DNA of 64,000 nt from Tolypothrix brevis GSE-NOS-MK-07-07A (lineage in GTDB: Bacteria > Cyanobacteriota > Cyanobacteriia > Cyanobacteriales > Nostocaceae): assembly GCA_019358985.1 (NCBI GenBank), contig JAHHIJ010000032.1:1-64000 (forward strand). Direction: 5' to 3'. The notes below the pieces were generated by a model. It was not told where the DNA came from and made no database searches. It saw only the letters and a program-made list of their open reading frames with translations. Of this stretch, positions 36,494 through 41,871 are shown piece by piece. The number at the start of each line of letters is the position of its first letter. The stretch's first letter is position 1. Made by a program: the position numbers and the translations under genes.

Positions 36494-36586
36494 AATAGAC
36501 ATCTCCAGAAATGAATGATGCGTTATCTGACCCCAAGAGACGTAGCAGTGCTACGTCTCTACATTCATTTTCGGAGATGTCTAATA
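36494..36586. repeat. MITE-like element overlapping the 3' end of narM
   Basis: Terminal inverted repeats AATAGACATCTCCAGAAATG and CATTCATTTTCGGAGATGTC, plus a perfect inner AGAGACGTAGC hairpin (36536-36560). It is the same family as 8209-8442 but shorter. The right arm encodes the last six residues and the stop of narM. Confidence 0.8.
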
Positions 36587-37035
36587 TATAAATTAAATTC
36601 GGCGATTGCTTTCGGGAAATTTTCGTTTTCATGTCCTGGACGACTAAGTTTCAGTAAAGAAAACCGCTGCAATTCAGTTAAATTCCCCCATTGTTGGGGT
36701 GTGATGCTTATACCTATTTCTTGGAGTTTTTTCTGAAGGCTATCTGGGATATTATTAGCATCCATCCACGGGGGATGAGGTTCAATAAATAATGTTGTCG
36801 GTAGTGTGCCGCTACGTTGTAAAATCAAATTATCAAGATACTTATGATAAGCTTGAATTTCGTTTTCTGTGGTGCAAGGTAGTTCCACTAAAGCTTCACG
36901 CTCAACTTGAGTCATGTGGCTCCAATCGGATAATTTCAGCTTAATACCACAGGTATCGAGTTTGTAGCGTACTTGCATAGGAATGCAACGTAGAGATTCA
37001 ACAAAATCTGCCTCGAATTTAAAAAAGACTGCCAT
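36565..37035 (-). CDS. narM: Nitrate reductase-associated protein NarM
   Basis: A 156-residue protein of the nitrate-reductase-associated family (TIGR02664), required for nitrate reductase activity in Synechococcus. It is seen in FFKFEADFVESLRCIPMQVR, YKLDTCGIKLKLSDW and the repeated half ISITPQQWGNLTELQRF. The last six residues (IRHLRK) and the TGA are written by the terminal repeat of a MITE-like element, so the native C-terminus has been replaced. It lies 17 bases after psiE on the same strand and about 2.5 kb from narB, on the same strand as the nitrate genes. Confidence 0.85.
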   Translation of the reverse strand: MAVFFKFEADFVESLRCIPMQVRYKLDTCGIKLKLSDWSHMTQVEREALVELPCTTENEIQAYHKYLDNLILQRSGTLPTTLFIEPHPPWMDANNIPDSLQKKLQEIGISITPQQWGNLTELQRFSLLKLSRPGHENENFPKAIAEFNLYIRHLRK

Positions 37036-37716: not shown

Positions 37717-38078
37717 TATTCACCAATTCCCCGGATCGCCAAATATATTGTCATGTATATTTAGCAGCTTATCATTCTTCAGGTCGCAATTGATAAGTAG
37801 ATGGGCATAAATAAACCCTTCTTAACGTAGTAACCTGATTAGCCGTTAAATCCTCACCGACGAGCGGTAAACCGCTCACTACTAACCAGGAGAGTATTTT
37901 ACATTTAATTTCGCCCACTTACTTAATGATTATTTCAACGTTCACCAGCAAGGAGTCCCACACCATAATCCCTGATTTGGTGTGGGGAGGAATTGCTGGT
38001 TGGATTTGTTGCATCCAAAACGCCAACTTTTCCCATAGCGAAAAAAGGGAGGAGGATAGCAACAAATCCAACAATAGT
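37717..38078. other. Structured non-coding region downstream of the IsrB gene
   Basis: It holds nested stems. GAGCGGT/ACCGCTC lies at 37862-37877. A long imperfect hairpin runs from ACCAGCAA (37944) through CCCACACC/GGTGTGGG to TTGCTGGT (38000). A perfect 14-base inverted repeat GTTGGATTTGTTGC/GCAACAAATCCAAC lies at 37999-38072. These stems probably form the right end of the IsrB-carrying element, as IS200/IS605-type transposons carry terminal hairpins. No protein is encoded. Confidence 0.55.
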
Positions 38079-39230
38079 TTATGCAACAACGCATAATCTC
38101 GTACTCCGTTTTATTAATTTGACATTGTTGGGATTAAATTGACCAATGCGTGACCAGTTGTGGTCGTAGATGGAAATATTTTTTGTTTTCCCAGAATTAG
38201 TAAATCCGCCAACCCAACCGCGTATTGCCTCTTTATTACGAAAGGCTTGAACGTAGTCACCTGACCGAAAACCAAATGGTGTTATTGTTCCACCTTGTCG
38301 TTTTAAAATTCCACCCTTCGAGTAGTTTTCTTGATGCAATTTTCTCCTAAATAATTTAGGTCGAGTAATCACAATGAATGGTGATAGAGTTACAACACAT
38401 TCCCCAACCCAATGATGCCCGTGATTTTTTGGGGTATGGAAAGCTTTATACTGAACAAATGCGGTAGATGCTAATGCTATTGCATCGTTAGCATGAGTTT
38501 CTGGAGTCTGCTTTGATTTATCTTTCTTGTCTTTAACAAGACCTAGCTGAGTGCGGTATTTCCCGGTATCCAAAGAATCTATTTCTTTGAGGGGTGCAAG
38601 CTTTGACGCTTCGACTCTAAACCATTCTTGCCCAACTGTTACAGGAGATATGCCAAATCCATGACCTTTGGAATTACCACCACACGACTCGTCTCTAATC
38701 TCGGAGATAGGAATTATTTTGGACATTTCTGACAATATTCTTAATTCCATTTCTCGATTAGCTTTGATGCTAGGCGGTAGCTTTTCTTGGCGACGATTGC
38801 TAAATCTTTTTTCTCGGTGATTGCGTAACTTGAAAGCAACTTTGCGGTTAATGCGCTGTCCTCTGCGAGTGCGTCTTAACTCATGTCTTTTTTCCATTTT
38901 TCCTGTTACAGACTGTCTATCTTTCGTCGTCTTTTTAGATTTATAAAAACCGGGAATACAAGCATGGAATAAAGCAATTGTTGCTAACTTAGTTTGGAAT
39001 GCAATACCTGTAAAAGCCTTGCCTCTATCTGTTCCGCACACTATTTCTTGCGTATTGTATCCAGATGGTTCGCGTAATAATTGGATGTAAAATAATCCGA
39101 CTTTATTGCGTAACCCTTCAGCTTTACCCAACTTTATCCACTTCCTCGCTCTTGCCGGAGTGGTCGGCATGAGTGGTTTCCCATTTGAGGATAGAACTGG
39201 TACTCGTGTTGTTTGATTATTCTGTGACAT
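38079..39230 (-). CDS. isrB: RNA-guided nickase of the IsrB type (IscB relative lacking HNH)
   Basis: A 383-residue protein. An N-terminal PLMP domain has VLSSNGKPLMPTTPARARKW (13-31). RuvC-I has Asp68 in CGTDRGKAFTGIA. An Arg-rich bridge helix (about 113-150) includes the RRTRRGQR run. RuvC-II ends in PISEIRDE (Glu181). RuvC-III is ETHANDAIALA (His246, Asp249). Only about 65 residues separate RuvC-II and III, with no HNH nuclease, which defines IsrB rather than IscB. The C-terminal part (GGTITPFGFRSGDYV, SIYDHNWSRIGQF) is the usual TAM-side domain. IsrB uses an omega RNA to nick DNA. No TnpA gene is nearby. All RuvC acidic residues are intact. Confidence 0.85.
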   Translation of the reverse strand: MSQNNQTTRVPVLSSNGKPLMPTTPARARKWIKLGKAEGLRNKVGLFYIQLLREPSGYNTQEIVCGTDRGKAFTGIAFQTKLATIALFHACIPGFYKSKKTTKDRQSVTGKMEKRHELRRTRRGQRINRKVAFKLRNHREKRFSNRRQEKLPPSIKANREMELRILSEMSKIIPISEIRDESCGGNSKGHGFGISPVTVGQEWFRVEASKLAPLKEIDSLDTGKYRTQLGLVKDKKDKSKQTPETHANDAIALASTAFVQYKAFHTPKNHGHHWVGECVVTLSPFIVITRPKLFRRKLHQENYSKGGILKRQGGTITPFGFRSGDYVQAFRNKEAIRGWVGGFTNSGKTKNISIYDHNWSRIGQFNPNNVKLIKRSTRLCVVA

Positions 39231-39470
39231 TTGTTTTTAGGGATAACCCAAATTACTTTGTATTTAGAATAAATTCTGTCCCTTCGGGCAATCTGGTAAG
39301 CGTATCTTCTATTCACGACTAGACCGTACAGGGGGCTAAACTAGGGAAATATTTAGCCGTGTAACCTTACCAAATCTCGTTGCCCTAACCAACTCTCTCC
39401 TTGCATACCGTGAACTTAGTGAACTAAGTATTTTGCAAGCCTACACTGTCCCGGAGGGCAGTGTAGGTAG
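39231..39470 (-). ncRNA. Candidate omega RNA of the IsrB gene
   Basis: The leader just upstream of the nuclease start folds well on the minus strand. CCTACACTG/CAGTGTAGG is a perfect 9-bp hairpin with an inner 3-bp stem (39440-39467). CTTAGT/ACTAAG-type arms lie at 39414-39429. GGGCAA and GGTAAG on one side (39286-39300) pair with CTTACC and TTGCCC on the other (39366-39385). They close around a GGCTAAA/TTTAGCC hairpin (39334-39358). IscB/IsrB omega RNAs are encoded directly upstream of the nuclease, with the guide at the 5' end. That would place the guide just beyond 39468, toward narB. Ends and expression are not shown. Confidence 0.6.
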
Positions 39471-39576
39471 TTGACTGCGTAATATTGATTAATACAGAAC
39501 GACTTTGAGCCGCCCTGTTTTTTTCTGTACTTTTGTTAAGAAATGCGTTCACTTGTCGCCAAAGGTGGTAATGATG

Positions 39577-41871
39577 TCAGCCGACACCACTGGTTAATGA
39601 CACTTGCTTAGGCAACTCAGTATTAACCGCAACTGGCACTAATTGTACCGCACAAGCTTTTAATTCTGGTTGGAGTGAGTCGGGACAAGATTCTGGATGT
39701 GTGAGAGCGTTTGCTTCAGAATTTTCTGCCCACAGCGCACCCCAATGCATGGGGACAAAGACCGTACCGGGTGCGATCGCTTTTGTAATTTTAGCAGGAA
39801 ACTTGGATTTTCCCCGACGCGATCGCACGGACACCCACTCCGAATCTGTAATATTCAACTTTGCCGCATCACGAGGATGAATCTCAATAAATGGTTGGGG
39901 ATGCATCGAGCGAATTTTTTCAATGCGACCGGTGCGTGTTTGAGTGTGCCAATGTCCGTAAAGTCGCCCAGTTGTCAAGACAAAGGGATAATCAGGATCG
40001 GGTGGTTCTGCTAATCCTCGCGAATGATATGCGCCAAATCGAGCGCGTCCATCAGGAGTGTGAAAACGCAAATCAGTGTAAAGTCTTTTGGAATTAAAAG
40101 TTGTAGAGACGCGATTCATCGCGTCTGTATTTGTAGAGACGCGATTCATCGCGTCTGTATTTTCTTCAAAACCAAGAACACCAGTATCAGAATCGATATA
40201 TATCGGTTCAGGTTTATTTTCTGGATGGGGCCATTGAGTCGCACCTTCCGCTTGTAATTGCTCGTGACTCATACCTGTCATATCGCAAGGACGATCGCAA
40301 GTCAGTTGCACAAACTCAGTATATACCTCAGCGGAGTTTGTAAAAGAAAATTCTTTCTCAAAACCTAAGCGACGCCCTACTTCAGCAAAAATTTCCCAAT
40401 CTGCTTTTGCTTCCCCTGGTGGTGTGCGGAATGCTTGACATAAGGTGACTACTCGTTCGGAGTTTGTCATCACACCAGTTTTCTCACCCCATTGTGCTGC
40501 GGGTAAGAGAACGTGAGCGTAAGCAGCAGTTTCTGTGGGATAATAAGCATCTTGATAGATTGTAAAAGGCGATCGCAATAACGCTTTTTTCGTCCGCTCC
40601 AAATCTGGCATACTCACAGCCGGATTAGTCGCCGCAATCCACAATAACCCGACATTACCGTTTTCTAACTCCGTAATCATATCCCACGCCGTCAAACCCG
40701 GATTTGGGGAAATTTGCCCCGGCTTCAGTCCCCAAAATTCCTCAACTTCCCCTCGCTGTTGGGCATTTTTCACCGTCCGATAACCAGGTAACAGATGTGA
40801 TAAACCTCCCGCTTCGCGTCCTCCCATCGCGTTTGGCTGACCGGTTAAGGAAAATGGTCCGGCTCCTGGTTTACCAATTTGTCCGGTCATTAAGTGCAAA
40901 TTAATGATGGTTCTGACTTTTGCGGTACCTTCCGATGATTGATTTACACCCATTGACCACATCGACAGAACCCGCTGTGATTGTCCCCAGTAGCGAGCTG
41001 CTGTTTCTAAATCTTCAACGCTGATACCGCAGCGATGAGCTACGACATCAGGGGAATAATGGCGAATCACCTCAGCGTATGCAGGGAAGTTGCTGGTACA
41101 ATCCTCAATGAACGCGGGATCGATGTAATTCCAGCGCATCAATAAGTGAGCCATCCCGTTCATCAAGTCGATATCTGTACCGGGACGAATCGCTAAATGT
41201 AAATCTGCGGCTTCTGCGGTTGGTGTGCGTCGGGGATCGACCACAATCATTTTCACTTTGCGATTCTTTTTATGGTATTTCTCCAATCGGTTGAAAATGA
41301 TCGGGTGACATTCAGCCGTATTGGTACCAATTAAAAAAGCACAGTCAGTTAACTCCAAGTCATCGTAACAGCACGGGGGACCATCTGCGCCAAAGCTTTG
41401 AATGTAGCCAGCTACAGCACTGGACATACATAAACGAGAGTTGGCATCAAAGTTGTTTGTACCCAAACAGCCTTTCATCAATTTCTGAGCTATGTAGTAG
41501 TCCTCAGTTTGAAACTGACCGGAACCATACATACATATGGCTTCTACTCCTTGGGTAAAGCGCACAGTTTGAATGCGCTGGGTGATAAGATTAAAAGCTT
41601 CATCCCAAGTTGCGCGGCGAAATTCCTGTTTTAAGGAGTCTCGTAGCATTGGGTAGCGTAATCTATTTTTATCTAAAGATTCGGCGATGGTTGCGCCTTT
41701 AACACACACCATACCTTGACTTGACGGATGCGCTTTATCCCCCCGCACTCGCCAAATTGGAGTTCCTTGGCTATCTCGATTTGTGGCTTTGCCATGTTGC
41801 GCTGGGGGGGAGACTTCTAATCCACAGCCTACACCACAGTAAGGACAGACGGTTTTAGTAATTTCAGTCAT
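39577..41871 (-). CDS. narB: Ferredoxin-nitrate reductase with in-frame repeat insert
   Basis: A 764-residue molybdopterin enzyme reducing nitrate to nitrite with reduced ferredoxin. The 4Fe-4S cluster uses Cys9, 12, 16 and 56 ([15 protein letters not shown]). Mo-bisMGD domains follow, and the C-terminal dinucleotide-binding part contains [20 protein letters not shown]. At about residues 571-590 two tandem copies of a 30-bp palindromic repeat are read in frame as [10 protein letters not shown] twice, in the linker before [17 protein letters not shown]. The insert keeps the frame and avoids the known active-site segments. Last gene of the nirA-nrtP-narB set, 720 bases behind nrtP, with its own candidate NtcA site. 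Confidence 0.95.
40101..40160. repeat. Two tandem 30-bp palindromic units inside narB
   Basis: Each unit is TTGTAGAGACGCGATTCATC followed by GCGTCTGTAT; arms AGACGCGAT/ATCGCGTCT pair. This is the same family as the perfect palindrome in the glycosyltransferase gene. Unit length 30 is a multiple of three, so copy number can change without shifting the frame. Confidence 0.9.

What the first reader, a model, noticed from the sequence alone, without database searches (positions are those of the whole stretch)
38079..39470. IsrB-type RNA-guided nickase with a foldable omega RNA next to narB
The protein keeps Asp68, Glu181, His246/Asp249 and an Arg-rich bridge helix but has no HNH domain, which is the IsrB definition. 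Its leader contains a 9-bp perfect hairpin and a two-part closing stem (GGGCAA/GGTAAG with CTTACC/TTGCCC) around an inner GGCTAAA hairpin, as expected for an omega RNA. Both look intact, so the system may be active. If the guide lies just outside the leader (about 39468-39490), its match elsewhere would give the target.
Basis: partly seen in the sequence, partly recalled or inferred. Interest (0 to 1): 0.85.

Follow-up and report, generated by a model that had tools for sequence, protein, structure and literature searches.

The report
IsrB transposable element beside narB
A cyanobacterium carries an intact-looking jumping element between nitrate genes; it encodes a small Cas9-like, RNA-guided DNA nickase whose guide matches the element's own unoccupied insertion site, an ordinary member of a known family whose natural target site could be worked out here.

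Summary
Window 38079-39230 (minus) encodes a 383-aa IsrB, related over its full length to the solved DtIsrB, with Asp68, Glu181, His246 and Asp249 invariant in 13 aligned sequences and no HNH match. Its leader is a HEARO-type omega RNA (36 bits, below Rfam's cut-off of 83) whose fold is supported by covariation. Comparison with other insertions and with two congeneric empty alleles places the element at 37939-39475 (1537 bp), inserted without target duplication just before TTGA, the motif published for DtIsrB; the two residues that read it are kept (R361, Q364). No second site was found in the host genome, so the evident target is the empty allele of its own locus; the occupied junction reads GTCA instead and should be spared. 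Across seven elements, 16 of 26 empty alleles read guide plus TTGA. The likely role is the one proposed for OMEGA nucleases: nicking empty copies so that the element is retained. This is a new member of a known kind; cyanobacterial IsrBs were already tested in vitro. No mobilising transposase was identified, and expression and activity are untested.

The parts
37939..39475 (-). IsrB insertion element, 1537 bp (GTCAACTACC ... GTGAACG), no target-site duplication; a G at one end can be assigned to either end
   Evidence: ends shared with other insertions; absent from two congeneric empty alleles
39476..39495 (-). guide / protospacer (20 nt, length taken from DtIsrB), lies in the narB 3' flank just outside the element
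   Evidence: 20 of 20 bases identical in both congeneric empty alleles; HEARO model starts at 39475
39273..39475 (-). omega RNA scaffold (HEARO, RF02033)
   Evidence: cmscan 36.2 bits, E 2.2e-5, model 1-211 of 211, gathering score 83 not reached; fold; covariation
39440..39467 (-). left-end 9-bp hairpin (transposon-end hairpin, also first stem of the omega RNA)
   Evidence: sequence; 6 of 10 pairs of the helix change on both sides among 13 sequences
38079..39230 (-). isrB, 383 aa; D68, E181, H246, D249; R361/Q364 = DtIsrB R323/Q326
37957..37986 (-). right-end hairpin CCCACACCA/TGGTGTGGG
   Evidence: sequence; conserved in other elements
37935..37938 (-). TTGA, target-adjacent motif next to the right end
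   Evidence: right end directly followed by TTGA in this and other elements; TTCA and TTAA in the two congeneric empty alleles
39577..41871 (-). narB-type nitrate reductase, upstream neighbour (context, not part of the element)
   Evidence: NCBIfam nitrate-reductase/formate-dehydrogenase family hits, none at its curated cut-off
36565..37035 (-). narM, downstream neighbour (context)
   Evidence: TIGR02664 195.9 bits, cut-off 110

Best explanation
A 1537-bp IS200/IS605-type element that carries isrB but no transposase gene inserted between narB and the narM side of a nitrate-assimilation cluster, directly 5' of a TTGA. Transcription through the left end would give an omega RNA whose 20-nt guide is the flanking chromosomal sequence. 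[quoted passage not shown] Repair of nicked empty copies from an occupied sister chromosome would keep the element in place. Shown here: the element's ends, the guide and empty-site relation, TTGA, the conserved catalytic and motif-reading residues, and the covarying RNA fold. Inferred: transcription, nicking, repair-driven retention and mobilisation by a Y1 transposase in trans.
For: Full-length homology to DtIsrB. HEARO match at the leader. 29 of 61 pairs change on both sides, 0 of 500 shuffles reach this. dN/dS 0.055-0.105 in 10 of 10 comparisons, with dS above 1 in 9 of them. Empty alleles in G002 and G004. 26 empty alleles at 80% identity or more for seven elements, 16 with guide+TTGA. 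R361 and Q364 correspond to the TTGA-reading R323 and Q326 of DtIsrB. No second site for the guide in the host genome. Three near-full-length Y1 transposase matches in the genome.
Against: HEARO score below the gathering threshold. The window's right end reads GTGAACG where most others read TTTTAG, so mobility may be impaired. No transposase with matching ends was found. Neither congeneric empty allele has TTGA (TTCA, TTAA), so they are not direct evidence of a cleavable target in this genus. One of five covariation measures, further pair types, does not exceed shuffles (245 of 500), and three of the 61 pairs fail in 10 or more of 13 sequences. No consensus promoter on the minus strand. The structure model was too poor to use.
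Confidence: 0.75

Rival explanations
1. A fixed relic: the element inserted long ago and can no longer move; isrB and the RNA are intact only because decay is recent.
For: Altered right end; no cognate transposase found; fragmentary relatives in the same genome.
Against: Open frame with invariant catalytic residues and low dN/dS between lineages, though dN/dS mostly reports history before this insertion.
Confidence: 0.3
2. A host-co-opted RNA-guided regulator of the nitrate genes, bound rather than cutting, guided by the narB 3' flank.
For: Position inside a co-directional nitrate cluster; no terminator-like site between narB and the RNA in a simple scan.
Against: Catalytic residues kept; no second guide site with NTGA at up to 3 mismatches in the genome; element absent from this place in G002 and G004; closest relatives sit in unrelated flanks.
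Confidence: 0.05
3. An IscB that lost HNH recently, or another RuvC family member, rather than IsrB.
For: NCBIfam's only hit is guided_IscB, 85 bits, below its cut-off of 175.
Against: DtIsrB far outscores all IscBs and aligns over residues 4-378; 44 of 135 family genomes hold matches at E<=1e-85, most over nearly the full query.
Confidence: 0.03

Closest known systems
DtIsrB from Desulfovirgula thermocuniculi (PDB 8dmb; PMC9581776, passages seen; organism name recalled)
   Same: full-length homology, RuvC without HNH, PLMP motif, omega RNA 5' of the gene, TTGA motif, R/Q motif-reading pair
   Different: 32 residues longer than the 351-355 residues implied for DtIsrB; omega RNA about 203 nt by the HEARO match against a 262-nt scaffold; different host
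CwIsrB (Crocosphaera) and DsIsrB (Dolichospermum), cyanobacterial IsrBs tested in vitro (PMC9581776, passages)
   Same: cyanobacterial IsrB with omega RNA
   Different: reported motif NTG rather than TTGA; sequences not compared here
Microcystis orf2067, IsrB homologue inserted into phage Mic1 gp49 at ATGA (PMC11237433, passages seen)
   Same: cyanobacterial IsrB-carrying insertion at an NTGA motif
   Different: observed insertion into a phage gene; chromosomal and without observed movement here
HEARO RNA (RF02033)
   Same: match over the whole model at the leader
   Different: score under the gathering threshold, as for the other IsrB loci hit

Membership tests
IsrB | RuvC-like nuclease with conserved catalytic Asp/Glu/His/Asp | tested here: met
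   D68, E181, H246, D249 invariant in 13 sequences
IsrB | no HNH domain | tested here: met
   Pfam at E<=1 gives only RRXRR
IsrB | sequence closer to IsrB than IscB | tested here: met
   8dmb E 4.3e-45 against best IscB 8.9e-9; no tree was built
IsrB | N-terminal PLMP motif and arginine-rich bridge helix | tested here: met
   KPLMPTTP and KRHELRRTRRGQR in the ORF, aligned to DtIsrB
IsrB | omega RNA upstream of the gene | tested here: met
   HEARO full-model match E 2.2e-5 but below gathering score; covariation; expression not tested
IsrB | guide outside the element followed by NTGA in the empty site | tested here: met
   16 of 26 empty alleles across seven elements; for the window's own element 0 of 2 (TTCA, TTAA), TTGA being seen only beside the inserted element
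IsrB | RNA-guided nicking of the non-target strand | not testable with these tools
   needs biochemistry
IS200/IS605-type element | subterminal hairpins and no target-site duplication | tested here: met
   hairpins at both ends; clean junctions
IS200/IS605-type element | mobilised by a Y1 transposase (TnpA) | tested here: inconclusive
   none in the element; three near-full-length Y1 matches elsewhere in the genome, none with matching ends nearby
IscB | HNH domain inserted in RuvC; NCBIfam guided_IscB cut-off | tested here: not met
   no HNH; 85.1 bits against 175

The most novel reading that the evidence does not exclude
IsrB drives homing-like retention in a cyanobacterium with many chromosome copies, with the guide made as the tail of the nitrate operon transcript, and related strains escape it by losing the third base of the target motif: both congeneric empty alleles keep the full 20-nt guide match but read TTCA or TTAA instead of TTGA, and across seven elements 9 of 10 motif-less empty alleles differ only at that base.
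Probability: 0.1. Interest if true: 0.65.

Novelty: new member of a known kind. Interest (0 to 1): 0.3.

Why it matters
IsrB is thought to be an ancestor-like stage of IscB and Cas9, and what it does for its element in nature is, as far as I know, not settled. This locus and its relatives give natural pairs of guide, target motif and empty allele in culturable cyanobacteria, so the retention idea could be tested on natural targets instead of designed ones.

Tried and rejected
Target elsewhere: the left flank (165 bases) had no second match better than E 1.74, and 16 guide bases plus NTGA at up to 3 mismatches matched only the element's own junction.

Escape by motif loss: 10 of 26 empty alleles lack TTGA. 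At the general identity of these alignments that is about what drift gives; the third base differs in 9 of 26 against 107 of 627 for other G positions. The 26 are not independent (shared ancestry; the L021 site lies in a dispersed repeat), so I treat it as suggestive only. Eleven further junction-spanning alignments, all for L020 and below 80% identity, were dropped before the count; 1 of those 11 read TTGA.

Cognate transposase: ends of this and two other elements were compared with five Y1-matching loci of the host (L107-L111), with no match. Loci holding only the right end (10 of the 30 fetched) had no hit to the three host TnpA proteins, nor did 10 regions fetched. In one search the TnpA query file was empty through my own filter; one search repeated it properly. 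L211/L215 pairs a similar right end with what reads as a TnpB; L104-L106 share the left end, and I read L106 as a TnpB remnant by eye, but the search with the L211 TnpB did not hit L104-L106.

Structure prediction: mean pLDDT 52, not used; no fold search was run.

Consensus promoters and terminators: nothing on the minus strand; the scan covers only sigma-70-type consensus.

Literature: the papers on ISC elements (PMC4810608) and on OMEGA systems (PMC8929163) are not held. A search for HEARO with ATGA/GTGA gave nothing relevant in its 10 listed papers. That HEARO elements integrate before ATGA/GTGA is recalled.

Full report
What is there. The minus strand of window 38079-39230 is an open frame of 383 codons. 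Its best match among solved structures is DtIsrB (8dmb), E 4.3e-45 over residues 4-378; the best IscB gives 8.9e-9 over about 170 residues. Pfam reports only RRXRR (E 5.4e-37), no HNH. NCBIfam's IscB model matches at 85 bits, below its cut-off of 175. Ten pairwise dN/dS values against relatives lie between 0.055 and 0.105; dS exceeds 1 in nine of them, so they are rough.

The RNA. cmscan places HEARO (RF02033), the whole 211-position model, at 39475-39273 minus with 36.2 bits (E 2.2e-5 for the 1901 bases searched); the gathering score of 83 is not reached, and a whole-window scan at gathering thresholds gave nothing. Among 12 other IsrB-type loci scanned, 7 had a HEARO match at E<=0.5 (26.9 to 41.6 bits, none at gathering) and 5 had none (L012, L014, L017, L019, L020), so the Rfam model fits this group poorly. 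Independent support comes from 13 aligned leaders: the window's minimum-energy structure forms 93.0% of cells, against 84.7% in shuffles and 25.7-45.0% when slid, and 29 of 61 pairs change on both sides (shuffled mean 14.7, 0 of 500 as high). The number of further pair types does not exceed shuffles (245 of 500), and three pairs fail in 10 or more of the 13. The structure was derived from one of the sequences, which favours it somewhat.

The element's ends. Nine of the 12 relatives found by name share the left end GTCAACTACC at the position equal to 39475, each with unrelated sequence outside. A scripted search over 43 loci found a right end in 21 (16 after removing five duplicate records); in all 21 it is followed by TTGA. 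The search pattern itself contained TTGA, with up to 8 errors allowed, so this alone is weak. The window reads GTGAACG before TTGA where most others read TTTTAG.

The empty site. A query joining the window's outer flanks matched across the junction in two of the congeneric genomes, G002 and G004. A pattern search of the five genomes of the genus found the unoccupied site in the same two, with no mismatch, and none in G001, G003 or the host. There the guide sequence GTATTAATCAATATTACGCA runs straight into TTCAAATAATC or TTAAAATAATC; in the window it runs into the element, and after the element comes TTGAAATAATC. The element is therefore 37939-39475, 1537 bp, without target duplication, and the guide is 39476 outwards. 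The TTGA of the window's own pre-insertion site is inferred from the base now beside the element; neither congener has it.

Other elements. Joined flanks of 12 further elements were searched in 217 family genomes; only two candidates per genome were scored, so counts are lower bounds. From the 46 loci I examined, 26 junction-spanning alignments of at least 80% identity came from seven elements, the window's included: 16 read guide followed by TTGA, 10 do not. Six of the 13 elements gave no junction-spanning match there. Nine of the 10 without TTGA differ only at the third base. These show that TTGA commonly stands at the site before insertion.

Target reading. DtIsrB prefers a TTGA motif at 60 degrees and NTGA in earlier work, and reads G3 with R323 and A4 with Q326 (PMC9581776, passages). 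Counting along the aligned chain puts these on R361 and Q364 here, both invariant in the 13. At the occupied locus the guide is followed by GTCA, which lacks G at the third place, so self-nicking is not expected (inference).

Setting. The neighbours in the same direction are a NarK-family transporter, a narB-type reductase, then the element, a PsiE-like gene (below cut-off) and narM. In 13 of 29 other narB loci, DNA like the PsiE-like gene lies within the 1.5 kb flank. A dispersed repeat of about 130 bp (37794-37928) is inserted 6 bases beyond the TTGA.

How it probably works. By the mechanism proposed for OMEGA nucleases, IsrB with the omega RNA would nick chromosome copies that have lost or never had the element, and copying from an occupied copy would restore it. 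The sequence relations fit this; expression, nicking and restoration are not shown. What moves the element is unknown: the host has three near-full-length Y1 transposase matches, none with matching ends nearby.

How common and how new. Matches at E<=1e-85 occur in 44 of 135 genomes of the family, and two more distant IsrB genes with HEARO matches lie in the same genome. Cyanobacterial IsrBs (CwIsrB, DsIsrB) were tested in vitro with an NTG motif (PMC9581776, passages). An IsrB homologue inserted at ATGA was reported in a Microcystis phage (PMC11237433, passages). I therefore file this as a new member of a known kind. Five literature searches showed no listed paper on natural empty sites of IsrB elements, but the main OMEGA paper is not held, so I make no claim of priority.

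Noticed in passing
L006:883-1953 (host genome G000:C44, about 147963-149033): One open frame joins the N-terminal half of an IsrB-like protein (79% identical to the IsrB-like ORF in L004, with the RuvC-I Asp-containing GVDPGS changed to GIEERR) to a ComFB domain (Pfam 75.5 bits). It may be a chance in-frame junction after truncation, or a real fusion.
   Followed up: partly
window 37794-37928: Dispersed repeat of about 130 bp next to the IsrB element: 49 matching rows in the host genome, itself included, 20 of them at E below 1e-20 (40 of 96 candidates scored). It is absent from the two congeneric alleles.
   Followed up: partly
window 40102-40158: Two in-frame copies of a repeat giving TDAMNRVST inside narB, in a stretch where the narB matches of many relatives are interrupted.
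   Followed up: no
L103 (G000:C32:270500-278500): Both ends of a decayed relative of this element lie about 5.3 kb apart (L103 930 to 6187) and enclose three open frames of 840, 309 and 356 aa in the opposite direction; by eye the first looks like a dynamin-type GTPase and the third like a patatin.
   Followed up: partly
G014:C79 118553-122709; G002:C168 58117-58500; G004:C297 20261-20368: Fragments resembling the end of narB recur downstream of narB in other genomes, as if this intergenic stretch is repeatedly rearranged.
   Followed up: no
L015:896-2330: In Plectonema cf. radiosum an element of this type lies about 425 bp from a run of 14 tRNA-family matches plus one tRNA-Sec match.
   Followed up: no
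empty alleles of seven elements (L085, L086 and others): Where an empty allele lacks TTGA the third base is nearly always the one changed (9 of 10); the base differs in 9 of 26 against 107 of 627 for other G positions, without correction for relatedness.
   Followed up: partly
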